Of a stretch of 64,000 nucleotides of DNA, positions 39,431-61,907 are shown in pieces. Each line of letters starts with the position of its first letter. The first letter of the stretch is position 1. Both the position numbers and the translations under genes were made by a program. The DNA lies in the NCBI GenBank assembly GCA_026419785.1, contig JAODTK010001688.1, positions 209,807 to 273,806 of the forward strand, read 5' to 3'. This stretch comes from Sclerodactyla briareus (lineage: Eukaryota > Echinodermata > Holothuroidea > Dendrochirotida > Sclerodactylidae). The notes beneath the pieces were generated by a model. It searched no databases. It saw nothing but the letters and a program-made list of their open reading frames with translations, and was not told the origin of the DNA.

Positions 39431-39492
39431 CGCAATCACAGCAGTCCTTACTGTATTTTAATCCGGGTCACATGCCTTCTTTTCTGCACATT
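39431..39492 (-). pseudogene. Lectin-gene cysteine-cassette exon, damaged copy
   Basis: The minus strand reads ECAEKKACDPD, then (one frame over) KYSKDCCDC-G, ending at a strong donor gcg|gtaagt (GT at 39430-39429). It fits the cassette E-C-x5-C-x-x-x-x-x-x-x-x-x-C-C-x-C, but the 62-base interval is one base short. The expected AG just before the leading codon is CG (39493-39494). It is either a decayed exon or one affected by sequence error. It is the most downstream cassette I found; no terminal exon, stop or poly(A) signal for the gene was recognised below 39.4 kb. Confidence 0.4.
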
Positions 39493-40715
39493 CGGCAAGA
39501 GAATCAGACATTAATTACAGAAATAAAGATCGGTTATTGATGTTGCCTCGTTTTAGTTATCTATTCTACATGACGTGAGATCATATACTGACAGTTTGTT
39601 TTCTTCTTTTTGATGTAGCGTTCACTCCGCAAGTTACCAAGTTTACTGCAGTAGGCTTCCTGGATTGAAGTGAACAGTGAAGCCATTCCTTGGAAAGTAA
39701 ATTCAGTAAAGCGTTAGGAAAAAATCAGCCTCCCCTTCAAGGGGGAAAGTTGGGTTCACGTCAGGCGTCAACTGTTGTAGACGCCAGCCAGTAAATTGCA
39801 CACTTTTTCGATTACGACACCTAATGGTTTCTGAAACAGAAAACACGTTTGTATTTGTCCGTTGTACGTTAGGGCCTATTATGTTTTGCGCCTCAGTATG
39901 CCTTTCAAGGACTCAACTACAATAGTCCGCAAAGCTATTGAATGCGAAATACTTATAACCACCGACATTTTGGGACCCATGCAAGCAGGCAACCCCATGA
40001 GTCAAGCATAGCGATGGAGAGATTTGGGGGGGGGGGGTGGGAGGGGGGGGTTGAAAGTACAGATCCCCAGGTAGTGCGTCCTTCATAAAATGGCTTCAAC
40101 CTCCATATTGGCAAATTCCGGACAATTTATGGCGCCCCTATGGACCCATGCTTCTGGCAGTATCTGCAACACAGCTACAAACTCTGAACACAAAAACCAG
40201 ATCACTTGGTTCATGAGGGGGGTTGAACCCCCCGTGCGTGCGCCCTGGAGTAAAGTCGCTTTTAACTATAACCTAATTTAACCTATAATGGCGAGGCGAA
40301 TGCCGCCCGATATTCTTCACACATGATACTTGCTGCAAGTTGTATTTGAAAACCGAGAAAACGACTTCGAAGTAGTATTCACGTGGAGATAAATGGAACC
40401 CTTCTTCCATATTATTGTGAGCGAAGTTTTTGTTCAGATCATTGTCCATATAACAGTTCGTTGTACAGGATTCTATAAAGTACTGTTGTCTTGCATTACG
40501 TTGAATTTAACGGCGAGCTTCGCAGTAGTTACGAGGGGCTTTGAGCAATAACAGAAGTGCCCCATTCTCACCTTCGTACCGGTATCGGTTGAAATTCAGT
40601 CTGGGGATTGGATTCCTAAAAGATTGAATGAACCACCAGATTCCTTGGATAAATGGTCACTGTACCTTGCGCCTGGCTCTGGCATTAGGAAAGAAAAATG
40701 AACATAGGGACTCAC

Positions 40716-40775
40716 GGCATTTACAAGTCTTTTTGTTGAGTATGAATCCTGGCTTGCACTCGACCGGCTGACATT
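40716..40775 (-). CDS. Lectin-gene cysteine-cassette exon (intact)
   Basis: This intact 60-base exon, phase 1 in and out, has acceptor gtttccggatactag|aa and donor tgcc|gtgagt. It encodes ECQPVECKPGFILNKKTCKC, the spacing C-x4-C-x10-C-x-C. The C-x-PGF-x6-C-x-C part is very like the CEPGFSYSEEVCRC type of module near the VEGF-C terminus. It is one of a series of minus-strand exons spaced about 0.9-1.3 kb apart (42.85, 42.0, 40.7, 39.4 kb), each coding a single cassette. That pattern is expected from repeated exon duplication in a secreted multi-cassette protein. Confidence 0.62.
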
Positions 40776-41520
40776 CTAGTATCCGGAAACAGGACAAAGA
40801 GCAAAAACATATACAATTCTTCATTAAGCCAAACCAACTTAATCGTGCATATGTATTTCTCGTGCATACTTGACTGTGCATGTGTCGGATGCATTAGAAA
40901 CGTACGAAACTAATTGTCCGAATTCTCTTGAGTAGTTAGCCTCTATTAAACCTGAGTTACTGGCTCTGTTCCGTGTGAGCCCTAGGTTGGTAGACGACTC
41001 AGACTCAGTCACTGATTTTGATATTGGGGAGGGGGAGTGGGGGGGGGGGTGTCACGAGATATGAGCAAAGGAACAAAACTCCGCGTATTCGCTTCCACGG
41101 TGCTTTGAGTCGTGCTATATTCTATTGAGACATGGATTGAGACATGGCTGATGCGGAGACTGGATTCTTCCATCACTACCTCACTCCACCGCACCCTAGG
41201 CTACCGTTAGTAGGACCATATATCCAACGTCATGTTTTCCAGGAGCTGGGATAGTCAAGATTTGTTGCCCGATTTGATGCCGTAACTGAGTATTTCAGGA
41301 CTTGGTCCTCGGGACGATCCCGCCAAACACATGATCAGTCGTTACGGGAACAAGTGGGTCGGGCCGATCGCTGGGACGACCACGTAGCTAACGGTTGGCA
41401 CCTGGTCTTGTGTTAAGACGTCGAGATATGCCCGAGTTTCCTGCTACTTTCATCCGGCATAAGTCTGCACTGCGCCACCATTGGTCGTGAGCAATATATA
41501 AACGTCTTAGCACAAGACTA

Positions 41521-41605
41521 CAGAGTACCTTGCTCATGGGTACACAACGTGTTACTCAAACCCACAATACTGAGTTACGAGCCCGACGTCGTCTGATTAA
41601 TTTTT
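41521..41605. repeat. Truncated copy of the 26.9-kb retroposon-like repeat
   Basis: It shares ccttgctcatgggtacacaacg...gagttacgagcccgacg with the 3' half of the repeat at 26861-27165 (ccttgctcaagggtacaacg...ggttacaagctcgacg). The 5' half is missing. Confidence 0.5.
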
Positions 41606-41710
41606 TTCAAGAATTGTGGCCGTTTCTCTAGTCATCTGGGTTATTCTCCTTTTGGGATGGTGGGTGTTTCGGGGTCTTTCATGAGAAGTTCGTCCTCCCT
41701 GACCCTTTTC

Positions 41711-41769
41711 ACTAAACTAAAAAAAAACTACACTAAACTAAACTAAACTAAACTAAACTAAACTAAACT
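41711..41769. repeat. (CTAAA)n microsatellite
   Basis: Pentanucleotide actaa repeats, with one A-run interruption near 41720. Confidence 0.95.
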
Positions 41770-41985
41770 CTAATTACGTTACCTCATGCTCCCGCGCTCC
41801 AGGAATCGATTGGCTAACACAACCCAATTACACTTGTGAAACAGGTAGCTTGCTAAACATCGATCTGCTTAATTGCGAGGTTTAGCCAACTAATTAGAGT
41901 ATTCACAGACAATTCAAAGGTACAAAATTTAAAGATGTCTTTGTATGTGGATAGTCGATCGTTATTCTTCGAATGAATGACTCAC

Positions 41986-42038
41986 CACAATTAACGTCTC
42001 CGGTCTCTCCCTGAATTGCACAAGTCATTCCGGACATT
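41986..42038 (-). CDS. Lectin-gene cysteine-cassette exon, one base short
   Basis: This 53-base interval lies between acceptor acatttaacacag|aa and donor attgtg|gtgagt. It starts ECPE and, one frame over, continues TCAIQGETGDVNC-G. Adding a single base after PE would give E-C-x4-C-x10-C-G with phase 1 at both ends, as in its neighbours. As it stands the frame shifts inside the exon. The terminal C-x-C is reduced to one cysteine. Splice sites look good, so a small sequencing or assembly indel is at least as likely as true decay. Confidence 0.45.
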
Positions 42039-42846
42039 CTGTGTTAAATGTAAAAGCATTTTCATAGTATAGTTCGTAATGTTGATTTCAATAAAAAACT
42101 ACCTTTACAATTCCCTTGATGGCGCAGCGACCATGAGCTGAAACTACTGCTGGCCGTCACCATGGAAAAGGCTGGGAGAACTAGTGAACACTAGGTTACA
42201 GGTTGTTCCGGACATATAATATAAAATACAGCTCTATTTTAGGCTACCCCTAAACCTTAGAATTTCAAAACAGAGTGAAGTCATTAATGTCAACAGATAA
42301 CTGGGTACTAACTTCCCCTCCAAACGATTGGAAATCATGTCATAATCAAGCAGAGAGTAAGCAGTAAGTTTGGGGGGGGGGGGGGGGGGGGAGAATGAGC
42401 TACTCCTAAGAATTATTCTATTGCTTTTCTTTTCCAAGCAGCTTCCTCAAATTGAATAATGGTTAGACCATGATTCTCATATATAATAGTGAGAACATAT
42501 GCCATTGCCATGATATTCATTAGGTGACTCTACGTAGATGACCCTAAAATAGAATGAAACACCGACAACACACAGGCACACATATCTACGCACGCACATC
42601 ACAATACATCAACTGCGTCATATTGTGGCATACATCACATGATCCTACGGCAGAAACCAACATTATGTGCCACACTTTAAAAGAAAATGAATGAACGAAC
42701 GAGGCATCAACAGAAAACAGTACAGATCCATTTTTTTGGCACACTTGGAAATGAAAATCCAATTAGCACTGACTCGAAAATTCCGTATCGATTAGAGACC
42801 AGTGAATAGCCAATACGTTTCTATAATGATGCAATAAAAGGCTTAC

Positions 42847-42909
42847 CGCACTCACAAGTCTCCTGGTTTACAACCATTAGTTTATTGTCACATTTTTTCG
42901 CTGAACATT
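42847..42909 (-). CDS. Lectin-gene cysteine-cassette exon (intact)
   Basis: This intact 63-base exon, phase 1 in and out, has a clean acceptor ttttttacag|aa and donor gcg|gtaagc. It encodes one cassette: ECSAKKCDNK then LMVVNQETCEC, i.e. E-C-x4-C-x11-C-x-C-G. The spacing resembles the BR3P/CXCXC modules in the C-terminus of VEGF-C/D, invertebrate PVFs and Balbiani-ring silk proteins (e.g. C-x10-C-x-C). The function of such modules is structural, a small disulphide-rich unit. It lies about 14 kb downstream of the 57.3 kb exon on the same strand and shares phase with the lectin exons, so I infer it belongs to the same gene. Confidence 0.62.
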
Positions 42910-43011
42910 CTGTAAAAAATGTCGAAGGTAACTTTACTGTATCTATTACATATACGGTTTCCATGATAGAATCGTTTCTCTGAACTCCAAGTTCCAAAAC
43001 TCGACGATCTT

Positions 43012-43160
43012 ATGTCGACAAACACATGTCAGCCCCCTATTGACACACCACAACACAACTCACACGCACCTCACTCCCACGCACTCACCTGCAGCGCCAC
43101 ACGCGCACACATCCCATGCACGCGCGCGCGTGCATCGACACAGACATTCTATAGCGCACG
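43012..43160. repeat. CA/CG-rich low-complexity stretch
   Basis: Mixed cacaca, cactcac and cgcgcg words. It overlaps the doubtful CXC exon at 43089-43148. Confidence 0.75.
43089..43148 (-). CDS. Possible CXC-rich exon in a CA/CG-repeat stretch
   Basis: This 60-base open interval, phase 1 at both ends, has the acceptor ctatag|aa and an excellent donor gcag|gtgagt. It would encode ECLCRCTRARAWDVCACGAA. Length, phase and the leading E-C agree with the neighbouring cysteine cassettes, and CxCxC matches the BR3P-type motif. Against it, the interval sits inside a low-complexity CA/CG stretch (about 43012-43160) and the acceptor has almost no pyrimidine tract. I treat it as an optional exon of the lectin gene. 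Confidence 0.25.
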
Positions 43161-43216
43161 CACAGCGTGTCTATTTCATGCATCTGTAACTTTCAAGACC
43201 ACTCTTACGCGGATTT

Positions 43217-43500
43217 TAAGGCTCAATTACACGATGCGATTTTTTTGGCCCGCGTTTTAGCGCGTGACCCAAATCTAATCTTCGCGTGAAAATGTGTTTC
43301 TGGACGATTTTTGTACACGCGAATCTTGTCGGGCAAAGTTCAACAAATCGGTCGTACGCAAAAGTCGGTGGCGTGTTAAAGGCCACAAAAAATCGTGAAC
43401 GATTTTCAGCAGAATCTTGGCGCGACAAAGTTAACAAGTTTGTCGTTTTTACCCGTACGATTTATTGTCGGCTAGATTTCTGTCCAAAGCTTATCATGAG
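43217..43500. repeat. Dispersed repeat R3, copy 1
   Basis: It begins aaggctcaattacacgatgcg and is rich in cgatttttt, gtcgggcaaagttcaaca and cgacaaagtt words. An inverse-ended relative at 52040-52352 finishes cgtttcgtgtaaatgagcctt. It resembles non-coding elements that end with a ctcaattacacg motif. Confidence 0.5.
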
Positions 43501-43849
43501 CTAGCGTACTAAGTGAAAAATGTTGGAGTCGAGCACATAGCTAGCATAAAAGAAATAATGAATGATTGAATCTCGCAAGTAGATTTCTGTCATTTCTCCT
43601 AATTTCGGTATTGAATTTAGAATTACCTCTTAGTGACGGCGAAGCAACAGTAATCAAGCCTATAAAATTTCCATGTTTAAATGCCTTGGGCAGGCGCATC
43701 GAGGGATTTGTAGGGGGGGGGGGATGAGGTCGGAACAATGTTAACAATTTAGTGGTCACTTGGTCATGGGGTGTTCTGACCCCCCCCCCCCCCCCGTGGG
43801 GACGCCAACGGGCCTTGGAGAGCAATTAAATGCACTATTTCTCCTGATG

Positions 43850-43922
43850 AGACTGGATGGATGGACAGAGGAATGGAGGATAGAAGGACGGATAGATGGA
43901 GGGAGGTGGGATGGATGGGGCG
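43850..43922. repeat. GGAT-type degenerate microsatellite
   Basis: Repeated gatgga/ggatag words. On the minus strand they produce the Pro/Ser/His-rich half of a 160-residue spurious frame. Confidence 0.8.
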
Positions 43923-46022
43923 GGTGTTGGATCCGGTCATCGGTTTTCACCGAGTGACCTTTAGACAGAGCAGGCCCGATTAAAGTGTGAGAGGGATTCA
44001 GATTTGGGAATGCTATATTAGCTGGCAAACAAGGGTACAGCCAATTTCCCCAATGCACCTCGTGCATATAGCACATAAAATACACTGAAGCATCGTGAAG
44101 GGCGACTGGGTATTGTTCGACTAAATTTGGCCGAAGAGAGACAAAGGCCATAATGTTGGTCTGGGAGTTAGGGACGAGGTAAGGAAAGAACACCACGGAA
44201 GACCGCTTGGCAGTGGGATTTCTAATGAACGAAAACATTTAGTCAGTTCCGAGGGCGCAGCCAGTGGGGGCAGGGTTGGACTTTTGACCGGTCAAAACCT
44301 GTTTTGACCACGAAGCCAGTTTAAACCAGGTTCCAACGGGCAACACTGGGTTTAAACGGTCAAAAACCTTATTTGACAAAGTTAGTGTGGTACGCCTCCA
44401 GTAAAAGGCTAAATGTATAGGCTAAAGTAGGCTCGTGACGCCAATTACACTAATGGCATAGGTTAGCGTGCATTACTAAGATTACAACTTTTGGGAGACA
44501 GAAGGTTGAAAATTTGTCCATTACAGTTAATTTTCTACACATCATAGGGTAAATTTGCTTGTTAATTTTATAGGGGGTGGGGGACGTGGAGGGTACTTGA
44601 AATTGCACACAATAGGCCTATCTGTTAGCAATATTAATTTGATTGCGCTCCTCTTGTTTCTTTACAATCATTATGCATTAAAAAATGTCAGATTGAGATC
44701 ATCTGAAGACCACATGGATTTGTCCAAATTTGGTATTATTTTTAAGTCACAATTTTGTACTGCGCTTGTATGCAGCAAGTAAATATTTCAGCTGTTTGGG
44801 TTATTTTGGCCCTTGTAGCTTAGGTATGGCATGAAGGTCTAGAATCTAAAGCTATGAATATCCTTAATCCCGTGTATTTTGGTTATAGATCTTATTCATA
44901 AAAAGAAGTGAAAGAGTTCTTGAAGATATGAATGCTGAAAAAATAACATGCATTAAACTGGAGCCGGCACAGTTAATTTGCTAAAAGTTAGGCATAATGG
45001 ATCGATTTTTAACCGTATTTTAGTACTCAGTCGACATTATTTTACATGCAAATTACATGTTCGCTCACGCCCGCGGCAGCCTGCAATGGCGCTACCAACT
45101 GTTTCCTCAACAGGTCTCCATTTAGCCCCTAGATGGAGAGGAGCGGGGAGGATGGAGCCTTTGCCCAAACTGCACAGATAAGCTTGTTAGCTTGTAGGGG
45201 ATCACACTCACATTCTGTCTGGCACCCTACCGACTGGGCGGATCCATCCTCCGGATATATTAGAACTTGAATTACTGAATGACACAAATGTGCTGGAGTG
45301 TCTGTAAAACTAATCCACAAACCCACCCAAAGTATACTTTGAATGACAGCTGCAGGATGATTTATACAGAGGCTATTTCAATAGCCGAATAAAAGACGAA
45401 GGTGTCAGTCAAACCGGAAGTTCATAGGGACCTTCGTACGGGGAAAGTTATATCATTTGAAGTTTGTGTTTGTGAAGCATGTGATGTGCCAAGACGAAAT
45501 GCATCCCCATAAGCAATAATACATAATGATACTTGCACAACACTGCAAACATTCCTCGTTTTCTATTGAAATTCAAACATTATTTTCACTTCGGAAAACT
45601 TTAGTCTATGGAGAAGATTGCTGTAGTCGGTGGTAGGGCGATGGTTACTTCGGTGAGAGAAAGACCACATCAATTCTGCTAATGTTGACTATCCAACAAA
45701 ATGAAACAATCCAATACATAACATAATTCCTGTGTGTCCATGTGTGACGTCATGCGTTATTGCGCAATGGGATACTGCGCAAGGGATTCCCCAATTCTCT
45801 GCTTAAGGGCCCACCCCTACATAACACAAGCAACGTTTCGAAAACATTTCAACAAATGTTTGAAATGTTTTTGTTGAGGTAAACATAGAGGTTAGGAGAA
45901 TGTTTGAACGTTTTACAAAAACGTTTTAAAAATTTTTGAAACTTAAAAAAAAACAAATCAAAATTGCTCCTTAAACTTTAGCGACGAAAGAGTTACTCCA
46001 AAACAGGTTCAGGTTGAGCTAG

Positions 46023-48188
46023 CAGGGCGGCGCCACAGGGGGGGGGCAAGGGGGGCGGTGGCCCCCCTATGGGGTTTGGGCGAAAAAAAAAAACGTTCCA
46101 ACGATGTTTTAAGCACTTATTTTCGTAGGGTGTGGGGTAGGTTGTCTATAATGGTACTACTATCAAGTTGGTCGGATTCGAACAAATCTCAGTAGATGGG
46201 GGGGGGGGGGCGCACGTTCCCCCAATCAAATCCTAGTGGAAAATAAACAAATGTGTGGTGGTAGTACTTAACTTTGTGTAATTGAAAACCCAATTTTTTC
46301 GCGCTCTTTGGATATCCGATGATATCCAAGCATGGGTCTAAGTACCACAAATCAAGTTCGCGGATTCGAACCAACATCTGCGCAGATGGGGGACCCGTTC
46401 CCCAATCAAATCCTAGTTATTAGGTCAATGAAAAACCCCAAAAATCTTCGCGCGTCCCGCGCGCGGGCGTGTTTTCTCGTCAAGTTTCATTTGATCCGAC
46501 ATAGGTCACAGCATCAATTTAATGTACCAAACATGAAGTCGCGGGATCGAACAGATCTTCGAGAGGAGGGGGGGGGGGGCATGTTCTCCCAAATCCCCAA
46601 ATGAAAATTATTGTGGTGATAGGTGTTAACCACTTACGTAAATCAAAAACACACATTTTTCGCGCAGGGTGTGGTTCTACATCAATGTTAATTGACCCGG
46701 TTATATGCCACGCATGAATTACTGCTACCGAAAATCAGTTTGTCGGATTCAAACAAATCTTTCAAAGATGGGGGGGCACGTTCCCCCAATCAAATCCTTG
46801 TGGAAAAAATCAAAAATGCTGTGGTGATAGTTTTTAACACTTAGGTAAATGAAAAACTCAAAAAATTTTGCGCGCTTAGCGCGCGGTGTTGCGTTTACTA
46901 CATCAATTTTCATTTGATCCGATATGCCTCGCATGAATCTATTTGTACCGAGAATCAAGTTTGTCGGATTCGAACAAACCTTCAAAGTGGGGGGGGGGGC
47001 ACGTTCCCCCAATCGAATTCCTGTGAAAAAATGTTGGATTGATGATAGTTTTCAACACTATGTAAGAACAAAAAACTAAAAATTTCCGCGCGCTTCGCGC
47101 GCACCTGTGTTTTCTTCGTCAATTTTCATTTGACCGATTATATGCCCCGCATCAATTTAATGTACCAAACATGAAGTTCGCGGATTCAAACAAATCTTCG
47201 TAGATGGCGGTGGGGGGGGGGGGGGGGGGGGGGTGGGGTGCATGTTCACCCAATCCCCACATGCAACATGATAGTGGTGATAGTTTTTAACACTTAGGTC
47301 AATCAAAAAACGCAATTTTCGCGCAGTGGTTGTGTTTTCTACATCAATTTTCATTTGATCCGATATGCCTCGCATGAATCTATTTGTACCGAGAATCAAG
47401 TTTGTCGGATTCGAACAAAATCTTCAAAGATGGGGGGGGGGGCACGTTCCCCCCAATCAAATCTTGTCTGAAAAAAAATGAAAAATGTTGTGGTGATAGT
47501 TTTTAACACTTAGGTAAATGAAAAACTCAAAAAATTTTGCGCGCTTAGCGCGCGTCGTTGTGTTGTCTACATCAATTTTCATTTGATCCGATATGCCTCG
47601 CATGAATCTATTTGTACCGAGAATCAAGTTTGTCGGATTCGAACAACCTTCAAAGATATGACACGCATATATCTACTTGTACCGTTTGGGCTTGTCGACT
47701 CAGAGGAGGCGTTTCGCAGTATTCGGCTAGGGGACGCATTCCGGCCATCCAAGTCTACATATTTACTCCATCGGTTATTTAGTCCAACAATCGGCAGTAA
47801 AAAGTTCAGTAAAATCTTACGCCTTGCCGCATAGGCGCACTGTAATTGAAGGCACGTTCACGAGCGGTTGTTTTGTGTGTGGGTATGCTATCAGTTTATT
47901 GACTGCTACGCGTCGTTACTGGTCGTCGAGAAATCCCTATCCATCATAAAGTGAGGAAAATGTTAATGAAAAATTACCATTATACAAAATGACCAGGAAA
48001 AAAAGCCAACTGATGATATTTTCCAGTGTCATGTTGATTGAAACGGCCAGAGAGGCGATATCTGTCATCTGGGAGCTCAGACGGCCCAAAATTTTCTGGT
48101 ACGCTCCGCGCCAACAGGGGTGCGCTAGCTTAGATAGTTAATCATCAAGTTTCGCCCCCCCTATGTAAAACCCGGGCGCCGCCCCTGT
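46023..48188. mobile_element. GGCGGCG-ended transposon-like element, copy 2, containing a satellite array
   Basis: The left end is cagggcggcgccacaggggg and the right end is gggcgccgcccctg, with the family's right-subterminal motif (acgctccgcgccaac...gcgctagcttagatag) at about 48100. Its interior is mostly the tandem array at 46.13-47.66 kb. It has the same orientation as copies 1 and 3. No protein-coding region was recognised. Confidence 0.55.
46130..47660. repeat. Tandem array, about eight units of 170-230 bp
   Basis: Each unit carries the ordered landmarks gtcggattcgaacaaatctt, a G run, cacgttcccccaatcaaatc, gtggtgatagtttttaacactt, an in-unit palindrome gcgcgcttagcgcgc, and catcaattttcatttgatcc. 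The first landmark recurs near 46170, 46362, 46535, 46743, 46963, 47180, 47405 and 47632. The later units are more alike than the early ones, pointing to recent expansion at the right side. Confidence 0.85.
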
Positions 48189-49141
48189 GAGCTAGTGATG
48201 TCGGAGTTTGTAGATATCGCCGGCGCCCTTGGTCCGCTGTTACTCATAAATATCAAATAAAACAAAAATGTTACTAAAAATTTTTCTAAAACGTTTTGTA
48301 AAACTTTTCTAACACGTTGTTGCCAAACATCATATTACGCAACACAAAAAACGTTTTAAGAAAAAAAAACATGGCGAACAATTGAACTGTTTTGAAAACG
48401 CTTTAAAACGTTTTGTGTTTGTGGGGACACTTGTGGCCAATAACTCCACATGGAAAAATCATATGAAATGGGGTTTGGACCTTTAGAGAGTTTTCATTCT
48501 CTACAACTATCACCCCTGTTGGATTCGAGACTGCAGCTTGGCCTCGTACGCACTGACAACTGGTTGGATGGCTTCTTCATATGAATTCTTGAAAGGGTGA
48601 CAAAAGCTCATTTATGAACAAAAACAGTTTTGACCAGTTTTGAAAGTCTGAGGTGGTCACAAAACATTACGGTTTTTAAACCAGGTTTTACACGGTTTAA
48701 CGGGGGTTTAAAACACCCTGCGTTAAACGGCCAAAACCCTGAGTGGGGGTGGGTAAGCGGATTTTGTCCCCCCCCCCCGACCGATGCTTCTTGCCACATC
48801 CTCATCACCCGAATCGTGGCGTGCCCCGTGACCACCACTACCGCCTGGTTACGCGTTTGGTTAGGATTCATTTCGATGTGGGTGCAGATGTACCGTTGCG
48901 ACAAAAAACAATGTTTGCATGGCGTTGGACCAAATCATGGAAGGATAACTTTTCGGAGCATACTCGCACCACAGAAACCTCGTAATCAATGTTGTATACA
49001 GTAACAACTTCACATTGCACACCGGTTGTCATGGTAGTAGCCCTCCACAGGGAAACATGTCACACCAACACATTTGTACAATATGTAACCTAGTGCTATA
49101 AATAAAACAGTGCATTAATCATGACTGCATGAATGTCAGCT

Positions 49142-49318
49142 ATGCGCGCGCTGCGCTTCGCACATATGCAGCGCATTATGTCAGTCGAGTCGAGCCGTGC
49201 GCGCTCGGCGCGGTATGGACGCGCGCGCACACGTCTTGAATTGAAGCATGCAGTGTATGTAGTTAGGCCTAGGTGTTTTCTTCAAACTCCAGGCGCGGGC
49301 GTGTAGACGGACCCGGCT
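49142..49318 (+). promoter_or_regulatory. CpG-rich stretch, possible promoter region
   Basis: Dense CGCG/GCGC words (around 49145-49160, 49196-49230 and 49292-49300) stand out from the AT-rich surroundings and end about 20 bases before the candidate first exon at 49335. No TATA box was seen. The palindromic GCGCGC words could instead belong to a repeat, because similar words occur in the 46-47.6 kb array. Confidence 0.3.
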
Positions 49319-49334
49319 CATATTTCTTTCGAAA

Positions 49335-49405
49335 ATGGAAACAGGTGATTACTTACATTATGTTCAGGTCGTGTCTAATCATTCAATCAATATCATGTTG
49401 AATGG
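49335..49405 (+). CDS. Candidate first coding exon of an unidentified gene
   Basis: An ATG in good context (gaaaATGG) opens METGDYLHYVQ...VVSNHSINIMLN and runs 71 bases, in frame without a stop, to a strong donor (aatgg|gtgagtg), leaving phase 2. It lies just downstream of a GC/CpG-rich stretch (49142-49318), as expected for a promoter-proximal exon. A phase-compatible continuation exists at 49832-49878 (acceptor aatag, donor gaag|gtacat) reading NDDCRGCVVKFVEAE. I do not recognise the protein. It would lie on the opposite strand inside the large intron of the lectin gene. Ab initio support only. Confidence 0.4.
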
Positions 49406-51775: not shown

Positions 51776-52039
51776 AGACGAGATCACCGACTACTACCAC
51801 TAGTAAACACCAGGCTACGCGCGTACATATACGAAGCGCTAGCCTAACAAGAATCTATCGCTCCCTTGCCATTTTCGGCGCTTCGTTTTTGGCGATTTGC
51901 AACATAAATAGCGAAGTTCATCACTTCGCTTCTACATTATTCGAAACAAAACATAGGAATTATCATAACCCCGCTCGTTTCATCTCAAATGATTTCTGTT
52001 ACATTATTTACAGTCAACTTTCTCATCTTACCGCACTGA

Positions 52040-52352
52040 AAATGCTCGCTATCTGTGGTTGCTATGGCCAGGAATTCGCTCCCGGTCCTACAAAAGTCGG
52101 CAACAAAGTTCAACATGTTGAACTGTCGGGCAAGCAAAATATTGTCGCATGCGACAAGAAATTCAACATAATTGCGTTTACACGTACGACAAGATCGCGC
52201 ACGATTTTAAGGAAATCGGAGTGCGATTTGTCGCGGCCGACTTTTTTCGCCGGACAGGGAAAAGAACATTCCCCCACCACTGCGACAAAAGTCGGCCGAA
52301 AAGTCGGAGCGCGACAAAGTCGGGTTTTGAAAAATCGTTTCGTGTAAATGAG
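52040..52352. repeat. Dispersed repeat R3, copy 2
   Basis: It contains gtcggcaacaaagttcaaca, tcgggcaagcaaaata and cgcgacaaagtcggg, and ends aatcgtttcgtgtaaatgag, the inverse of the start of copy 1. The 152-residue open frame across it (51889-52347) reflects this repeat, not a gene. Confidence 0.5.
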
Positions 52353-53000
52353 CCTTTATAGTTTCATTTACATTTCAAATACATCAAATTATGAAGTCTC
52401 ACCGTCAGTCGCAATACACAATTACGCACCAGATACACGGGCGACACGCGCAAATACGCTATCGAACACAGCGGCCACACCATGTCGACTGTGAAACTCA
52501 GCGATAACCTCGCTAAGGATGAATTCTCCAGGAGACCGAGAATCCATTAAAAGCTACTCTTCGTGAAGTTCTTACCTTGGCCAGGTCCTACCACCTATGC
52601 CACACACACACAATCCACACAATTACGTGCGTACCTAAGGCTTGCATGCATGGATGCGGATGTAGCGGGTCGTATCATTCAGTGATTGTGAGAATAATAA
52701 TTTTGCGAGGGGAGTTGGGAAATTTAGGGGAGATAAACTGCCATAGAAACGTGCAGAGTCATAAAAATCTAGCAAACTATGACTAAGTAGTTAAACGTTG
52801 ATTAGGAAAATATTCCATTATAATCGATTTGCCGTGTTGGTTCTATTTCATTAAGATGGTATATTGTAGTATTAATTCAAGACGTCGATGACCATCTTGC
52901 GATCCAGCAACCATCAAGCGTTATAGCTTACAACGACTCCAATCAACCTGCAGATCAAAATTCATGGGAATATAACCCCGACATCGAAGGTTACACCATC

Positions 53001-56000
53001 AGGGCGGCGATATGGGGGGGACGGGGGAACGGCGTCCCCCCCAATATTTTTGTTGAGGGGGACCGCAATGCATTTTGTCCCCCCCCCCCCAATATTTGAG
53101 CCCGACTGCTATTTCGCTGACACTGTATACGACATATCCAGCAGACCGTGCTTAACGAATGCAAATGACCTCCCTAAATGGTCAAGTTGAGTGAACTCTG
53201 ATGCTCCATTTTCGAAATTTGTGCGCCTACGCGCGCGAGGGTATTTTCAGGGGTCCGTAGTGTTAGACATATGATGTGCCTAGTGTGTAGACATATGATG
53301 GTCATAACAACAAAAATGCCTTGAAATTAACTGTTCTAACTATCAATGAAGAAGGGGTCTCCTTCAATCCCTATCGTTTGCATAAGACTGGCTTTACCAG
53401 CTAGGTTTGTTGCTCCTTATTTGATGGACGTTGTCGATTCTCTGCTAGGGGATCAGTTAGTCAAATAAACAAAAAACAAAACACCCTAGAAATCGCTATC
53501 TCGAGGTGAAGGGGGTGGTGAGGCGACGGCGGTAGGTCTACCACTGGCGGGATCTGTGATTTGTTCTTCTTTTTTTTTATTCATGGTGGCGACCACTTGA
53601 AAGTCCGATGCACGGTGCAAATACTATCACTATGAGGGCACACGGTGCGGCATCGAAATGCGGCCAGGGAACGCGATAAATTGCGTTCAGTTCCAACAAG
53701 GCGATCCCCCCAATGTCTCGCCTGGTTATGCGCGATCAGTATTGGTTTCTTTAATCAGTCACTTTGCAAACAATTACAAGGTTAAATGAGTCACAATAGC
53801 CAACGGAATTCCATTTGAACATTTTATCATTCAAAATATACTCAAATATCTCGAAAGGGTAATGAAAATCGAACGAACTTTGAATTTGGAATGAGCATGC
53901 AAATAGGAAAACTGAATGACCCTCCCGTCATGTAACTAATAATGTTTAAATAATATTCTAATATACAAATTTGATATAGCGATATGATTATAGAAATAAG
54001 AAAAAAAAATAGAAATAAGTGGTGATGGAATGGAAAAAATGAACTATAGCAACAGCATTTATCATCAAAGAGTATCGCCCTTTATATATATTCTACTACT
54101 TCCCAGTAACTCCCGGGGAGTTCACACCACCCTCTCACAAGCTACTTGCAGGCAATCCCCTGTATAGAGTGGAATAAGCCATCTAATTAGGCTCACTCTG
54201 CAGGTGTAACTGACACACTCAGGCTGTTGGCTGTTGAACATGTACAGTAGGCCATAGGTGTTGCTGGGGGAAAAAACTATGGCTATATATCGGTGATATA
54301 CCGTGGGGGGGGGGGGTCCACGGTTAACTCAGCGGATCAAGTGTGCCAACCAGGTCCTCTAATTTTGTCAACACGTATGCCGATGAAGTTGATATAAGAC
54401 AATAAAGAAACTTATGTTTCAGATAGGAATACTAGTTAAAGATGAAGAAATACCATACCTGAGGGGTTAAAATGAATAATTAGTAAAAATTCAAATAGAT
54501 AGTTTTGCTATATTGATAGTGACTGCGCGACTATACATCTAATGGGTAGCGAGAGGGTAATAATAATAATCAAAAAATGTATGGAGTTTGTAGGGGCTGA
54601 GTTTACTAATTTCACTACTTCTCACAATTAAGATTCGGATAATGAATGGCCTTGATAAACATAACAGTTTTATGGAATTTGCCCATCAAAATGCGTACCT
54701 TGTCTCGCCACATCAGACATTAATACAGTCTTTGGAGGGGGGCAGGGAATGTTATCATGGGGAAGTATTGGTCCCATAAGGGACCTTGAATGACTTAATG
54801 ACATTACAGTTACATGAAAATGTTACTCTTGATAATAGCTGCATGTCCCTAAAATTCAGGCCATTCACAACGGTTCACTAGAACTGTTGCAGGAAATGTT
54901 ACTATTGGGCAGTCTGTGGTCCATGAGTGCCTTAAATGACCTTGATGACATGCGGTTTTTATGAAAAATGCTTGCGCGAGTGATCACCAAGCCCTAAAAG
55001 AATTAGGTAATCAGATACACCCACCCCTATGCTATCGCCCAAAAGGTATTCAAATCAACCTTTGACCCCACGTAACTTGAAGACCAGGTGTGCGGATCGA
55101 AGCGGGAGTTAGTTTCGGCTATGAAGCACACAGAGCTATATCACAACCCCAAATTTGACAGTTTTTATTTCTTTGGCCTGTAAACTCTAAAATAAGCACA
55201 TTTTCTTAAACTTGACCTCTGACCTTTGGACTGTCTTCAGATGTTGTTGATCCACTGACCCAAAATTACCATGACAATCCCTACGAGCACCATGACTGCA
55301 CTCATCCCAGTTGTTATGGCATTAACAAAACTTCGAAAATTGCGTAATTTATGAAATATTAACATTAAATGATCTTGAGTGACCTTTGCACTGTTGTAAA
55401 TTATCAGGAGCAAAGGCGTCCATCTCCACCAAGTTTCATGAGGCTTCAACCAACTTTAAAATCTGCATTACATATGCAAATAGACTAGGTAAATGCAATC
55501 AGTAAACATAAGCCATGGGTGGACCCCTCGTCCCAACTGTACACATGATTGGGACTATAGATAACCATCTCCACCGAGTTTCGTCAAAATCCAACGAGAT
55601 GCAGAAAAGATCGCAGACATTCTGCAAGTTAGACTACTTAAATAGCATATATAATGCCCAGGACTAATCAGTTCGTGTAACGGTCATAGTGTCTTGTTAT
55701 ATACCCCGCACGGCATCCAATGCATCTACCGAAAGAGATATCTTGTACACAAGCTTCCGGGTCAACTTTATAAAATATGCGAAAATTTATGCAAATGGAT
55801 GGTCATTTGGGACGAAAAGTGGATTCACATCTGCAACTCTCACAACCGCGCACCTCCCCAAAAGGTCCCAGCATTATGGCTGCCACGGTCAGAGATATCT
55901 AACGCCCATAAGACGCCGACAGAGGACAGACAGACAGACCACACACACCACAACAAAGTGACCACTATGTCTCTCCCTTAACAAAGTTCAGGCGAGACAA

Positions 56001-57010
56001 AAATGCATGAATGTTCAAAAGTTAAGAAATTAGTTCGAGTACCATATTGCCTGGATTTTCCCCGCTGGGATTGCCCAAAGATGTAAACCTTGTGTTTATT
56101 TAAGGGATGAGGTTGAGGCAACATGGGTAAGTCTAGAACCACCTCTGCGGTCCTGGATTTTTGGCATATTTATCATGTTTATATTTGCAAATCCAGCAAT
56201 CAACGTATGGGTGCGACCACTTGTTGAAAGCCTGTGGTGTGTGCCGGGGCAACTTACTACGGGGCAGGCACAGGGGCGGGTAGAAACCCCTTAAAAATAC
56301 CGTCGAAGAAATTTCAGCCAGGAAGACGCCAAAATTTCGTGCAAAGGTATATTTGAAATTCAGGTGAAGATATATATATCCAAATATTGCCTGACTTTTC
56401 GATGAATGTCCAAAAGTTCAACGTAAAAATTTTTCGAGCGCAGCTTCAAAAAAAAAAAAAAGCGCGCAGTTGCGTTTTACTTCTGTGTTTTTTACTGAGT
56501 TTGGGCCCCTGTCTGGCCCCATAGGAGTTCCCTTCCCTCCATGCGCCTGGTGGTCCGCAAAGAAGATAAAAAAATTGGGAATCTTGTGTACAAACTCTGA
56601 GTGATAAGTCAGAGAGGGGCCAGTGTAATGTCGTTGGTCAAATTGGATCCTGTAAATTCTCGCCGGCGATCGCAGTACGTGGTTTTTGCCATTGCCCATT
56701 TCCAATGCTCCTTTCCTGAACTGGACGCATCACTTTGCATCGTATTTTTAGAATGTCACAGCACCCACGCGACCTGAAATTTATCGCCTATTTTTTTGGA
56801 GAACCTTTTCTGAAATGAAAAATTTGTTATCAATTTAAAGCGGCTGCTCACTGTCCCATAAGTCATGGGAAGTGCCGTTTCCTGCAATCTAGGGGACTGT
56901 CAACAAAAAATTTTCCTTGGACGCTACGCGCCAACCTGTGGTGGCGCTCTTCTTAGATGTATTCATTTTGTCCGTCCCCCCCCCAACCGCCAACACAAAT
57001 CGCCGCCCTT
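53001..57010. mobile_element. GGCGGCG-ended transposon-like element, copy 3 (about 4 kb)
   Basis: The termini agggcggcgatatggggg and atcgccgccct are inverted matches, each followed inward by a run of G/C and gtcccccc. The right-subterminal motif acgctacgcgccaacc...ggtggcgct...tagatg occurs at about 56920-56960. The interior (54.6-56.0 kb) is built of degenerate ~130-170 base repeats with wording such as atctccaccaagtttc and ends in a gacagacagaccacacac tail, a repeat style common in marine invertebrates. It could be a composite of several insertions. No transposase was seen. Confidence 0.55.
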
Positions 57011-57284
57011 ATACCATTGTACATATGTGGAAACAACTAGAGGGGTAATACGCGTATTTTCCAGGGATAAAACAACAATCGTCTCAAACATTAGACTAAT
57101 ATTGCTGCTAACGGAACTTGTTCTTATCTCTGCAAACCAATTGCAGATGATTTAGATCCTTTTCACGGTTATTATTCCTCCGTGAATCTGCTGTGCGTGG
57201 TGGTCATACGCTTCCATGGAGTCCCAACCCTACTTCTTGTAGTGATGGGACGCAGTCTTTTTTATGCTATAATAAATTGACTAC

Positions 57285-57349
57285 GCACTCACAAGTATCC
57301 GGGTGTGTTTACCTCCTTCAATTCGTGATCACATTCTTGCCGCCGGCAT
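57285..57349 (-). pseudogene. Lectin-gene cysteine-cassette exon, damaged copy (C-x4-C...TCEC)
   Basis: On the minus strand, ...cgatatttcag (AG at 57351-57350) is followed by a 65-base stretch that reads C-RRQE-C-DHELKEVN in one frame and ends in TCEC in another, then tgc|gtagtc. It matches the intact cassette at 42847-42909 (C-SAKK-C-DNKLMVVN-x-x-TCEC) residue by residue. It appears to lack one base at the acceptor side and one at the donor, and to carry one extra base near the CCCGG run, so the phase-1 reading frame hits a stop. Either it is a decayed exon or these are uncorrected assembly indels. It is the candidate exon 5 of the SUEL-lectin gene, the first after the lectin domain found so far. 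Confidence 0.45.
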
Positions 57350-57599
57350 CTGAAATATCGAAAGTAACGTTACTGCAATTTGTATAATTATTCAGTTCGA
57401 TCACTGACACCTCGGCTGAATCGTTGAACTTACTTGAGGCCAACGGGCCTGTTTCAAACCGCTAATGTCAATATCAACCTATCATGTAAAACGCCCGATG
57501 GTGTAAACAATGCTGATAATGTAAAAACTTCCTGGACACTATGGGCGGTTTTTAAAAAAGCCGCGGGGAGCAGCTCTACAAGTTCATAGCTCTTCTCAG

Positions 57600-57960
57600 C
57601 TGCCGTCCGTTCGTTCGTTCGTCAGTTAGTTAGTTCGTCTGGTCTGTTCGTCACGTTCATTCATACCTCCTAAACCATACATGCGATCAGGTTAAACTTG
57701 GTAGGGGGATGGAGCTCGCTACTGCTAGGCTGAGCTGCATTATGTTCGCATCGGTTTGATTAGATTTAATTAAATCCAATTAATTAATTACCCCAATATA
57801 AGTTTTCATTCGTACTTCTTAACCGTACATGTGATCGGTGAAATTTGGTGGGTGGAGAAGCAGCCAACTGGCTATGCTGAGTTACATTTTTTTTTTTGTT
57901 CTGAGTGTGATTAGATTTTAATTGAACTCCAATTAATTACCCCCAATTTCTATCCCACTG
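57600..57960. repeat. Short (GTTC)n tract and two diverged ~165-bp tandem units
   Basis: After gttcgttcgttcg, the pattern ttcattcatacctcctaaaccatacatgcgatc...gattagatttaattaaatccaattaatt is repeated as ttcattcgtacttcttaaccgtacatgtgatc...gattagattttaattgaactccaattaatt. Non-coding. Confidence 0.65.
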
Positions 57961-58639
57961 TCAGCCCTTTCCATTTCTCTGTGAGAAAGGTTTGTTACAT
58001 ACTCCTTGGAGCTGCAGGGCTGAGGTGTCTGGGATACAAGCCAATTGGGGCAATGGGGAGGGGGGGGGGGGGGTAAAGGCAGTTCTGTGGAATGATTTCC
58101 TCACCTTGGTTTTGCTAGACTCCGCCATTGTGGATCCAAGTTGTTTCCACTTTTCACTGGCTACAAGGCCTATGAGTTGTGCTGGATACACAAGTTCGTT
58201 GGGTAACATATATAATATATACAGGCCTAGGAATTGGTTAGTTGGGTTCTTGGTGCTGGACACTGATAGCAAAGATTAGGCTAATGTGGTAGACATGTTT
58301 CCAAGTCATTCCATGTTATACAGATGTCAGTAACGGTCATTAATGTGAACAAACCATAACTGTTGATTGGTGAAGAACACTGCAGTGTTTTGTCACAGAA
58401 TTTTTGCCGTCCGCAGTCTCTCAAGAGTTTCGACTTGCGCTTGTTACTTTATCGGTTTGAACAGGGCCCCTGAACCTTTATATGGTCGCACACAATCGGC
58501 CTTACTAGTATAACCTCTAATGGCCCAAATTTCTCACCCGTTCTCATAATGGTCCCAGACTTCTAGGTTAACTATTGAATTTCATTCACCTTTTGAGAAA
58601 GGAATTCCCATTATATTGTTATTTTTCTGTTTCTGTCAA

Positions 58640-59215
58640 CTGGGGTGTAGGTCGCTGTCTCGCTGCCGCCACGGCACCGCCGAAACTTTGAGGCGTTTTA
58701 GCGCAATAACTCTCAACGCTTATCCGATTGATCTGACGTGGTACGCAATGTTCGCCTTAGTAAAACTCGGATCGTTTTGAAGTGGACATCGCTGCGTGTC
58801 TGCTGCCCTCATTTGCATTGTTTCACACGAGCATACAGAGTTTTCTGCCGATGCACACGAAACGTGGGGATGGGGACAAATGTGGTCCCGAAAAACATGA
58901 CATGATTTCAAGTCACTAGACGTCAATTTATGTTTTTTCGCGTTTTTTCTCTAACTTTGTTGTTTGCACGAAACTCGGCGCATTGGACCTGTCGTTAGTC
59001 TAACAACAAACAATAATGTCATCCAAGGTCGAAGAGGTTCAAATTTGCATAATTTAATGTGCTTTCTCCAAAACGAGAACCACAAAGGCATTTCTGCGTG
59101 GATATTCACATCGGCAGTTTACCTACCCGCCTGTACATGTCTGGTTCTGCTAGATAATTTGGACTACTCCATTATCAACAGAGGGATATTTAATATCATC
59201 GATAAAGAAGAGTAG
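58640..59215. repeat. Dispersed repeat R2, copy 2
   Basis: It matches copy 1 in landmark order: gccgccacggcaccgccgaaa, gcttatccgattgatctgac, gttagtctaacaac, ttcaaatttgcataattta, tacccgcctgtacatgtc. Non-coding; the open frames in it are short. Confidence 0.6.
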
Positions 59216-60108
59216 CAAAGCTGTGGCGATGCCTAGGACACGCAGCATTTTTCAATATTTGAATTATTATTATATTATCTTTCATTATTATTAAATCATT
59301 ATTTCATATTGGGTCATGCCACACTTGGTATACCCGACCCGGTCATACTTAGTATGGTACCCTGTTGCTCTCCCGGGCGCTCCGAACAAGGAACTAGAGC
59401 GTGACAAACGAGGGGATAGGCAAGTTTCCCTCTGCACATGTATTACCTACCCCGGCCCCCACATTGTAGGTACCGCCAAAGGTCGTTGACTTATTTCCGT
59501 GTGCCTGGTGAAGAATTCGCAGCTGACATAGGTGTGTCATATCATGTTTCACCCTTGCAAATGGGTTTCCAGCCTCTGGAGGTACTGGCTATGTGTTATT
59601 CGATGAATGACCATTGTCGTTTTTTTCAGAGATGTGAATGTGGGTGGATTTTCACAATCGGGGTTGAGCTTTACGGGCGTCAGTTTGCGAATGCCATTAA
59701 GAATGGTTCGTTCATACGTGTCGAAAATGTGTTCGTTGCTGTTTTGGAAGCGAAATTTTGGGGCTGTTGTCCATCATAGCAGGCATGTTAGGGGATAGGC
59801 CTCTGGTGTAGGTCAAAACACGGTTATCAAGTCAGGGGATTACAAGCTGTGCAACTATTCATACTATCTCCCCAGCGTAAGGGATAAATCTTCCGCGTTT
59901 GTCTGCGGCGGCTAAATGCGGCGATTTCACTTCACATCACCATGTTCTGTTACATTTCCGAGAGATTGGGGGGGGGGGGGGGGGAAGGGGGGGCCCTAAC
60001 TCCCTATCATTACGCACTTGACTCAGATGCTCCACATATGACTCGAGCCTTATGTCTTTATTATCACCAAGTCTGTTCACACGATCGAACATACTCAATT
60101 GCACTTAC

Positions 60109-60198
60109 CACAATCTATATTCCACGTCCAGATATTTGAAAACCCCCGACATGGGTCATCGAAAACGCTTTCGTTGCCGACATTGCAAGAATGTTGGT
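60109..60198 (-). CDS. Secreted SUEL-type lectin, exon 4 (C-terminal half of lectin domain)
   Basis: This exon has 30 codons, phase 1 in and out, with acceptor ctgtaag|ac and a strong donor tgtg|gtaagtgc (GT at 60108-60107). It reads HSCNVGNESVFDDPCRGFSN followed by IWTWNIDC. This is the signature end of the Gal_lectin/SUEL family: C-x-V-x-x-N-x-V-F-x-DPC-x-G, then exactly twelve residues between the DPC cysteine and the final cysteine, as in rhamnose-binding lectins. With exons 1-3 it completes a leader plus one lectin domain of about 115 residues. The protein should be secreted or pericellular and bind galactosyl or rhamnosyl glycans. The usual aromatic/KYL segment is replaced by NIWTW. This is the strongest single piece of evidence for the gene. 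Confidence 0.85.
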
Positions 60199-60355
60199 CT
60201 TACAGAGCTCTCTACAATTCCTTAGACCCCTCAGCTTTACATCCTTTTCTTCTCTGCCGGGAAAGAGCGAAACGTTGCAAGTAAACTACATTGCGGAGAG
60301 ATTCCATATCCTGCTCCCCATACACCGTCATCTAAACATGTTTTCCCACCGACCA

Positions 60356-60530
60356 AGGGCGCGGCAGCCACTTGGAGGGTCCGGGGGTCATACCCCCCCC
60401 AACTTTGGAGAGGCCTCCATACACAATGATTTTCCACACACAAATGTTTCCATCACTGCTTCGGAACCCCCCCAAATGCTCTTGATTGACCCGCCCCCCT
60501 CCCTACACTTCAGACAGTCGGCGGCCCTTG
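60356..60530. repeat. Dispersed repeat R1, copy 3 (in lectin intron)
   Basis: It matches copy 2 in the same orientation (ggtccgggggtcat, aggcctccatacac, tgattttccacacac, actgcttcggaacc). It lies in the intron between lectin exons 3 and 4. Confidence 0.75.
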
Positions 60531-60696
60531 CCACGGACACAATTTACCAAATGAAAACTTAAATCAGTTTTATTACTTGGAAGATTTCAAAATGGGCGTA
60601 ATCACTGCAGACCCCTCTTCCCTCTTGGTATTGTTGCTCTCCGTGCAAAACCAAGAGGGGTAAACATGCGAATTCGGCATAACGGCAGCTACGTAC

Positions 60697-60753
60697 CTAT
60701 TATGATTACATTGTTGTTACGTTCATAAGATTCAATCCTTTCAACTGTGTTTT
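60697..60753 (-). CDS. Secreted SUEL-type lectin, exon 3 (short linker of the lectin domain)
   Basis: This is a 57-base exon, phase 1 at both ends, with acceptor ctcattag|aa and donor atag|gtacgt. It encodes roughly ENTVERIESYERNNNVIII. It would supply the middle strand of the SUEL domain between the exon-2 and exon-4 halves. In typical SUEL domains this part includes a P-N-x-x-x-V-x-x-x-C segment; here an N-T-V is present but the cysteine is not. On its own the exon is weak. The support is positional: the correct strand, the matching phase on both sides, and a location between two convincing halves of one domain. Confidence 0.5.
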
Positions 60754-61132
60754 CTAATGAGGTGTCGCTATTATTCTCATCGTTCCTTCAAGTACCAACG
60801 GTTCCCTAAGTGTGCTTCAGGCATGGGACGTCATATAGGGAACGCCATTTTTCTCCTCATATATTGCTGCGATAATGATCTGGTGGATGTGTAAGGAGGA
60901 TATTTTTTCTCTTCACGATTTGCCAGAGATCTAGGCCATATTTCTAATAAGCGCGGGGTACTATATCGCAAAACATTCGTGTCTCCTGTATAATACTTTC
61001 GCTAATTCTTCATTTTGCAAAGGTAACAATATTTATGTTCGACTTTTCATTTGAATTTACGCCTTTTGTCAGATTGCAGACTGTAGTGACTTAGAACTCA
61101 CAGAGGGTCGACTTTGTTTATGGTTGGCTCAC

Positions 61133-61228
61133 CGTATCTTGACACCCTGGCATACAGTGAATCATCTCTGTCCATAGCAGCTTCGTGGATTTTAATGACT
61201 TTCCCAGCATCACATTTCATCCTCATTG
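61133..61228 (-). CDS. Secreted SUEL-type lectin, exon 2 (N-terminal half of lectin domain)
   Basis: This exon has 32 codons, with phase 1 at both ends. The acceptor is ...aacaccag|ca (AG at 61230-61229; weak pyrimidine tract) and the donor is tacg|gtgagc. The translation contains MRMKCDAGKVIKIHEAAMDR, which follows the Gal_lectin/SUEL consensus L-x-C-x-x-G-x-V-I-x-I-x-x-A-x-x-x-R-x-D. The domain's usual YGR triad is MDR here. SUEL domains bind L-rhamnose or D-galactose and occur in egg lectins, fish rhamnose-binding lectins, latrophilins and EVA1. The next residues, DDSLYARVSRY, lack the cysteine that usually follows the R-x-D motif, so the domain is divergent. The donor lies 379 bp from the acceptor of exon 3. 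Confidence 0.72.
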
Positions 61229-61804
61229 CTGGTGTTCACACACGTTCTATCTGATTTGAAAGAGGAAAAATGTTCAGTTCTGTGGACACTAGTGTTTTTT
61301 AGAGAGACCCAAAATCCCATTATTTATGCTGAAGAAGGTCCCGGCAGGAGGCTCAAGAATCTGTGCTCCTGGTACGACTACTATGAAAACTATCGTTGTC
61401 TCTATTTCCTGTTAAATATGAGTTGTATATAGGATAGCAATGCGATAATCTATTTCATAGTCCACGTTTATTTTCTTTTCAACAATCCGTTTTAATGCAC
61501 TTGACCTGATCCGGATGAGGGCCACTACGGCAATCTGTGAATTTCTCGCACATCGGATAAAATGTGTTTCCTGGTAGTACCCGTAAGGGCGGTCGGTAAA
61601 TATATAGGTCGGCATAGCAGGGCAGGTCAGTATCAAATCTGGCAGATGGTTGAGGGAAACCATCGTTAGGCTAGGATTCCATAGATGCCGTATGCTGGTC
61701 CGGTAACGCATGTGAAGAATAGCCAATCTACGTGAACTGAGCAGGGGCCAGTGTATGTTGGACTGAGATCGTTGATCCATGCTCGCGGGGTCCGAATTGA
61801 CTAC

Positions 61805-61907
61805 CTCTCGTTTTAATACATCGAGAGCCGCAACGAAATTGATAGATGTGTATGCGTTCGGCGACAAGAACCACCACTATAGCGATCCACGAGAGTACAA
61901 ACATCAT
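61805..61907 (-). CDS. Secreted SUEL-type lectin, exon 1 (signal peptide)
   Basis: This is the proposed first coding exon of the minus-strand lectin gene. Two adjacent ATGs (the upstream one at 61907-61905) open a frame MMFVLSWIAIVVVLVA, a classic hydrophobic signal peptide, followed by ERIHIYQFRCGSRCIKTR. A donor (cgagag|gtagtc, GT at 61804-61803) ends the exon in phase 1, which matches the entry phase of the next exon at 61228. The paired cysteines after the leader fit the start of a SUEL/Gal_lectin domain, where a first Cys is followed about ten residues later by L-x-C. The start was chosen because it gives the leader in frame with exon 2. The 5' UTR and promoter were not identified. A 151-aa open frame overlaps on the same strand in another frame, and I regard it as chance. 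Confidence 0.6.

What the first reader, a model, noticed from the sequence alone, without database searches (positions are those of the whole stretch)
39431..61907. Secreted SUEL lectin gene fused to a series of single-exon CXC cassettes
Seen: a signal-peptide exon, three exons that together complete a Gal_lectin/SUEL domain (CDAGKVIKI...ESVFDDPCRG...C), then several downstream ~60-base exons, each coding one E-C-x4/5-C-x10/11-C-x-C module. The intact junctions are all phase 1, so they splice in frame in any number. Known: SUEL domains bind rhamnose/galactose; C-x10-C-x-C modules (BR3P/CXCXC) occur in VEGF-C/D, PVFs and silk-type proteins. Inference: one gene of about 22 kb with a lectin head and a disulphide-rich repeat tail whose length could vary by alternative splicing. 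I do not know of a named family with this architecture.
Basis: partly seen in the sequence, partly recalled or inferred. Interest (0 to 1): 0.8.

Follow-up and report, generated by a model that had tools for sequence, protein, structure and literature searches.

The report
Lectin exons followed by cysteine-module exons
An animal locus, read from a very error-rich assembly, carries an array of sugar-binding lectin exons followed on the same strand by tiny cysteine-rich exons; the exons look real, but whether they form one protein, and how that protein begins, is not shown.

Summary
The exons are real; the gene model is only partly right. The window's minus strand holds a two-exon SUEL lectin domain (61250-61102, 60253-60109) and five phase-1 cysteine-module exons (from 57349, 42909, 42038, 40775, 39492), two of them intact as assembled. 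The window ends where its contig ends, and 63144-38200 overlaps the end of contig C2188, giving a second version of the locus. The two versions differ by about 5.5% substitutions and 14.9% indels, and exons are no better than the rest. Chaperonin exons of this genome carry stops too. The broken frames are therefore no evidence of decay. C2188 adds eight further SUEL copies (one weak) upstream on the same strand, so this lectin is not the gene's head. The proposed signal-peptide exon is not open in the second version. Of 134 fetched SUEL proteins none lists Pfam CXCXC, and one has a loosely similar stretch. Best reading: a multi-SUEL extracellular protein with a disulphide-module tail. A separate downstream module gene is the main rival; no transcript was available.

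The parts
61102..61250 (-). SUEL exon B: first half of the lectin domain (raw frames VCE.. and MRMKCDAGKVIKIHEAA..). Best acceptor at 61250 (an alternative at 61246), donor CT|gtgagt at 61102. Frame slip between VCE and MRMKC.
   Evidence: splice scores; homologous exon start in L027; second version reads YGR where the window reads MDR
60109..60253 (-). SUEL exon C: second half of the domain (GCKAEGSKEL*RAL*DQHSCNVGNESVFDDPCRG..). Two in-frame stops in the window; donor G|gtaagt, phase 1.
   Evidence: second version open from KKRCKSEG to VFDD
57284..57349 (-). Cysteine module 1 (damaged frame, damaged donor in the window)
   Evidence: C2188 counterpart from 164242
42847..42909 (-). Cysteine module 2, intact: ECSAKKCDNKLMVVNQETCECG, acceptor cag, donor gtaagc, phase 1-1
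41986..42038 (-). Cysteine module 3 (frame slip in the window; second version reads PETCNCG)
40716..40775 (-). Cysteine module 4, intact: ECQPVECKPGFILNKKTCKCR, acceptor tag, donor gtgagt, phase 1-1
39431..39492 (-). Cysteine module 5 (stop, frame slip and no AG acceptor in the window; AG present in the second version)
61805..61907 (-). Proposed signal-peptide exon (MMFVLSWIAIVVVLVAERIHIYQFRCGSRC..): hydrophobic ATG start with phase-1 donor gtagtc. Not open in the second version; not accepted.
   Evidence: (0.15 such starts expected per strand in 20 shuffles)
38200..63144 (.). Stretch collinear with the end of contig C2188 (158501-185737, opposite orientation); both contigs end at the borders of this overlap
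   Evidence: (window contig ends at 273806)

Best explanation
The window shows the 3' part of a locus for an extracellular mosaic protein of an animal: an array of SUEL (rhamnose/galactose-binding) domains, each coded by two exons, followed by a tail of single-exon, two-disulphide-sized cysteine modules. All outer exon borders are phase 1, so domains can be added or skipped without breaking the frame. Proposed mechanism: the SUEL domains bind sugars multivalently while the cysteine modules form a rigid, disulphide-rich tail that anchors or cross-links the protein in matrix, mucus or egg coat. Shown: the exons, their strand, order, phases and the second version. Inferred: that the lectin and module exons are spliced into one product, secretion, sugar binding and the role of the tail. 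The apparent stops and slips are most likely assembly errors.
For: SUEL homology (E=1.1e-6 to 5h4s; a sister exon on C2188 scores 54.1 bits against the 31.4 cut-off). Modules exceed chance and recur in the second version, combined scores 47.4 to 61.0 against 32.0 at best on the opposite strand. Lectin-to-first-module distance is 2.76 kb in both versions. Residues for rhamnose binding in latrophilin-1 (Glu right after Cys1, Tyr63, Gly117, Lys120; PMC2430599, passages) can be read in raw frames: VCE, CRG and VFKYLDVEYR in the window, YGR in C2188. Noise signature: indels 14.9% and substitutions 5.5% over 217 tiles, exons 12.1% and 4.6%; stops in 3 of 4 chaperonin pieces.
Against: No transcript links lectin and modules; 14.4 kb without a recognised exon separates module 1 from module 2. 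The window's SUEL misses the Pfam cut-off. Two candidate modules upstream of this lectin on C2188 (146434, 156340) scored 23.3 and 20.8 bits, but a profile built without them does not recover 146434 and finds 156340 only at E=0.89 (0.18 to 2.4 in the other leave-out runs that list it), so interleaving is not established. In the 10-kb flank stretches read around other SUEL loci no module was found. 86-126 kb and 1-56 kb of C2188 were not read.
Confidence: 0.5

Rival explanations
1. Two neighbouring genes on one strand: a multi-SUEL lectin gene (or tandem lectin genes) ending near 60.1 kb, and a separate gene built of cysteine modules.
For: Module arrays also occur without a recognised SUEL on the 12.6-kb contig C810 (best leave-out E=0.0014). 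No module near the other SUEL loci read. The 14.4-kb gap between modules 1 and 2.
Against: Module 1 lies only 2.76 kb after the lectin in both versions and phases match; no start or PDGF/VEGF domain was recognised between, though the PF00341 search never ran.
Confidence: 0.28
2. A tandem array of several short genes, each with one or a few SUEL domains and some with cysteine modules; the window holds the last one, perhaps starting at the signal-peptide ORF 61907.
For: Hydrophobic start with a phase-1 donor 0.65 kb upstream of exon B; 0.15 such starts expected per strand. SUEL copies on C2188 include near-duplicates (133351 and 140908).
Against: The ORF is not open in the second version, where identity is 0.806 in aligned columns; that version is noisy too, so this does not exclude it.
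Confidence: 0.15
3. A decayed pseudogene: stops, slips and lost splice sites are real.
For: Stops in exon C, slips in exon B and in 3 of 5 modules.
Against: The lesions differ between the two versions; indels are as common outside exons; essential chaperonin exons show the same.
Confidence: 0.05
4. The module exons are chance matches.
For: Short motifs.
Against: 0 in 60 shuffles and 0 at >=24 bits in 12 shuffles; conservation in the second version.
Confidence: 0.02

Closest known systems
Multi-SUEL / rhamnose-binding lectins (Hydra, Pocillopora, fish CSL/SML-type; P0015, P0016, P0019, P0001)
   Same: Tandem SUEL domains with the CE..., YGR..., DPC.G.KYL pattern
   Different: No PF03128 in the Pfam column of the 134 listed proteins; the module regex matched 1 of 134 (P0061, a latrophilin-type receptor). 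Of 1542 matches only 120 were listed.
SUEL combined with other domains: WSC (Ptychodera P0034, Glandiceps P0035), TSP1 (Hydractinia P0050), TIL (Carabus P0017), latrophilin GPCRs (domain names for the Pfam accessions recalled)
   Same: SUEL as one module of a mosaic extracellular protein
   Different: The partner is not a CXC-type module
VEGF-C 'silk homology' tail and Balbiani ring protein 3 (CX10CXCXC; PMC5816233, passages)
   Same: Tandem C-x10/11-C-x-C cysteine modules in a secreted protein; that paper ascribes heparin affinity and matrix retention to the VEGF-C tail
   Different: Here each module adds an EC-x4-C start and lacks the third Cys of CXCXC (next residue G or R, then the exon border); no PDGF/VEGF domain was seen, and that search did not complete

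Membership tests
SUEL / rhamnose-binding lectin domain (PF02140) | Score over the Pfam gathering cut-off (31.4 bits) | tested here: inconclusive
   Window domain with X at stops: 15.9 bits. Half-domain piece from C2188: 27.4; sister exon: 54.1. Seven of nine own-genome matches exceed the cut-off; the window copy is not among the nine.
SUEL / rhamnose-binding lectin domain (PF02140) | Sequence homology to a solved SUEL lectin | tested here: met
   phmmer to 5h4s_A, E=1.1e-6, 32.5 bits
SUEL / rhamnose-binding lectin domain (PF02140) | Sugar-site residues Glu after Cys1, Tyr, Gly, Lys (as in latrophilin-1) | tested here: inconclusive
   Each is readable in a raw frame of one version or the other, never all in one open frame (residues from PMC2430599)
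SUEL / rhamnose-binding lectin domain (PF02140) | Rhamnose/galactose binding | not testable with these tools
   needs protein
CXCXC repeat (PF03128) | Score over cut-off (15 bits) | tested here: met
   17.3 bits for the two intact modules joined; 20.7 for a joined string in which module 2 was repeated
CXCXC repeat (PF03128) | Full CX10CXCXC signature with the third Cys | tested here: not met
   Best stretch covers profile positions 3-11 of 13; both intact modules end C-x-C-G or C-x-C-R
PDGF/VEGF (PVF) growth factor with CXC tail | PDGF/VEGF domain (PF00341) | not tested
   Genome-search requests 73, 81 and 117 did not complete

The most novel reading that the evidence does not exclude
A giant secreted mosaic protein in which at least nine SUEL lectin domains are followed by a variable tail of single-exon cysteine modules, a lectin-plus-silk-homology architecture without a named family, whose tail length could be set by phase-1 exon skipping.
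Probability: 0.35. Interest if true: 0.55.

Novelty: new variant of a known kind. Interest (0 to 1): 0.38.

Why it matters
SUEL lectins are used in defence, egg coats and cell recognition. A SUEL array with a disulphide-module tail like the matrix-binding tail of VEGF-C would be a new way to build a multivalent, anchored lectin, and would bear on the origin of the CX10CXCXC signature, which PMC5816233 (passages) calls phylogenetically unknown. A practical point: in this assembly, stops and slips must not be read as pseudogenes.

Tried and rejected
Pseudogene reading: dropped after the chaperonin control and the two-version comparison. Interleaving of SUEL and modules: favoured, then withdrawn as unproven because the two upstream module candidates were in the profile's own training set and were not firmly recovered when left out; the odds of the single-gene reading were lowered for this. 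Exon-versus-intron conservation as a coding signal: no difference. Candidates 49075 and 58902 on the minus strand: no acceptor or donor in place. Plasmid and Rfam searches of the window: no match. Own-genome protein search with the two modules: 3 matches, two of them the window's own and one at E=9.26. Strict module pattern in the own genome: 2 places, the window and C810, with 0 control matches. PDB search with the modules: only thioredoxins at E>=0.5. First protein search: 4 candidates, none at E<=1. Papers with both rhamnose-binding lectin or SUEL (or PF02140) and CXCXC (or PF03128): 0 and 86 of this open-licence library; most subscription papers are not in it. The organism was not identified.
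Full report
Setting. The window is G000:C1668:209807-273806 of a 319.5-Mb assembly in 3171 contigs. Its last base is the last base of the contig.

Observation. On the minus strand a SUEL domain is coded by two exons. Exon B (61250-61102; an alternative acceptor lies at 61246) holds the first half and exon C (60253-60109) the second. With X at the two in-frame stops of exon C the domain matches PDB 5h4s_A at E=1.1e-6, but Pfam gives only 15.9 bits against 31.4, and the own-genome PF02140 search lists nine matches without this one. Downstream lie five short cysteine exons: 57349-57284, 42909-42847, 42038-41986, 40775-40716 and 39492-39431. Two are intact, with phase 1 on both sides. A strict pattern finds those two and nothing in 60 shuffled windows; a tolerant scan finds four on the minus strand at >=26 bits, none on the plus strand, and none at >=24 bits in 12 shuffles. 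A fifth hit of that scan, 22.4 bits at 43148, is low-complexity and was set aside.

A second version of the locus. Contig C2188 (read at 158501-185737) is collinear with window 63144-38200 in the opposite orientation, and both contigs end at the borders of the overlap. I read this as one locus assembled twice; two haplotypes, or a duplication that happens to end at both contig ends, are not excluded, because the copy-count search did not complete. After realignment the versions differ by 5.5% substitutions and 14.9% indels on average over 217 tiles of 100 bases; the seven exons pooled show 4.6% and 12.1%, within the spread of random tile sets (22% of sets have as few substitutions, 16% as few indels). 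This indel-heavy difference, equal inside and outside exons, is what uncorrected long-read contigs give (inference). An earlier alignment with low gap cost gave about 85% identity in aligned columns and overstated substitutions.

Control for noise. The chaperonin family PF00118, essential in any animal, gives only four matched pieces in this genome, three of them with stops inside. In L028 the conserved VGDGTTTVTMLAG exon changes frame twice by my reading. Frame breaks in this assembly are therefore not evidence of pseudogenes. The control is small, and the low number of matches also shows that the assembly or the exon-wise search misses much.

What the second version adds. All five module exons recur there, with combined scores of 47.4, 48.3, 57.0, 54.9 and 61.0 against a best of 32.0 on the opposite strand. 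In the same list two other places passed 34 and look false (62580 at 34.5; 43148 at 39.2), and exon C itself scored 44.7. Lesions are not shared: exon C reads openly from KKRCKSEG to VFDD in C2188, where the window has two stops, while C2188 breaks shortly after. Module 3 reads PETCNCG and module 5 has its AG acceptor in C2188. Conversely C2188 breaks modules 2 and 4, which are intact in the window. The proposed signal-peptide exon (61907-61805) is not open in C2188, although such hydrophobic starts with a phase-1 donor are rare by chance (0.15 per strand in 20 shuffles).

Leave-out test. Because my module profile was built from these loci, I repeated it with each locus left out. Module 1's C2188 copy is then found at E=0.00035 and its window copy at E=0.66. 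Modules 2 and 3 are found in part (window 0.0027 and 0.39; C2188 0.83 and 0.00061). Modules 4 and 5 are hardly found (window E=7 and 1.1; C2188 5.4 for module 4, not listed for module 5). The modules are thus diverse at DNA level, and their kinship rests on the shared cysteine and splice pattern, not on base similarity. Two candidates upstream of the lectin on C2188 (146434 and 156340) fail this test: the first is not recovered at E<=5 and the second only at E=0.89 when only those two are left out. I therefore do not claim that lectin and modules are interleaved.

Upstream. On C2188, in the stretches read (56000-85999 and 126000-185737), SUEL exons on the same strand give eight further copies: B60871/C62958; C68129 (B weak, at 66810); C75717; B77612/C80790 (weak); B128212/C129783; B133322/C134845; B136886/C138221; B140885/C143685. 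The window's lectin is therefore at least the ninth SUEL in a row. Whether they form one gene or several cannot be told. Flank stretches of other SUEL loci (L009-L016, L025-L027) showed no module; the three strong hits of that scan were all in the module contig C810. A 12.6-kb contig, C810, carries further module-like exons without a recognised SUEL.

How it may work. In mouse latrophilin-1 the SUEL/RBL domain binds rhamnose through Glu42 (next to the first Cys), Tyr63, Gly117 and Lys120 (PMC2430599, passages). Raw frames of the window hold VCE, CRG and VFKYLDVEYR, and a raw frame of C2188 holds YGR, so the site looks kept; this is inference from pieces. Each module (E-C-x4-C-x10/11-C-x-C) has four cysteines. 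The related CX10CXCXC tail of VEGF-C gives heparin affinity and matrix retention (PMC5816233, passages). A SUEL array plus such a tail would make a multivalent sugar-binder held in matrix or mucus. Secretion, splicing of lectin to modules, and variable tail length are all inference.

Known relatives. A composite query found 1542 SUEL proteins, 120 of them listed; none of those, nor the 14, lists PF03128. The module regex matched 1 of 134, in P0061. The size limit (about 450-1431 residues) and the list cap mean that larger or unlisted proteins were not seen. Three paper searches pairing SUEL, rhamnose-binding lectin or PF02140 with CXCXC or PF03128 returned nothing. The paper on rotifer lectins (PMC8878817, passages) mentions SUEL in large multidomain membrane proteins of bdelloids.

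Verdict. I rate it a new variant of a known kind (mosaic SUEL protein) if the splicing is confirmed.

Noticed in passing
window 1675-1932 (+): Open frame with a Laminin G domain (PF00054, 48.4 bits, cut-off 24), probably an exon of another extracellular-protein gene.
   Followed up: partly
window 38200-63144 and G000:C2188:158501-185737: Unmerged overlap of two contig ends; the two versions differ mainly by indels, so frame-based gene calls in this genome need care.
   Followed up: yes
L020/L021 (G000:C810): A 12.6-kb contig with a second array of module-like exons on its plus strand, none with a recognised SUEL.
   Followed up: partly
L028-L031: Only four chaperonin pieces found in the whole genome, three with stops; in L028 the frame shifts twice by my reading.
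   Followed up: partly
window 52001-53000: The two contig versions agree far better here (93-97% in aligned columns) than elsewhere in the overlap; cause unknown, perhaps a stretch that was polished or a recent repeat.
   Followed up: no
window 46150-47660: Repeated stretches matching one part of C2188 several times: a local tandem repeat.
   Followed up: no
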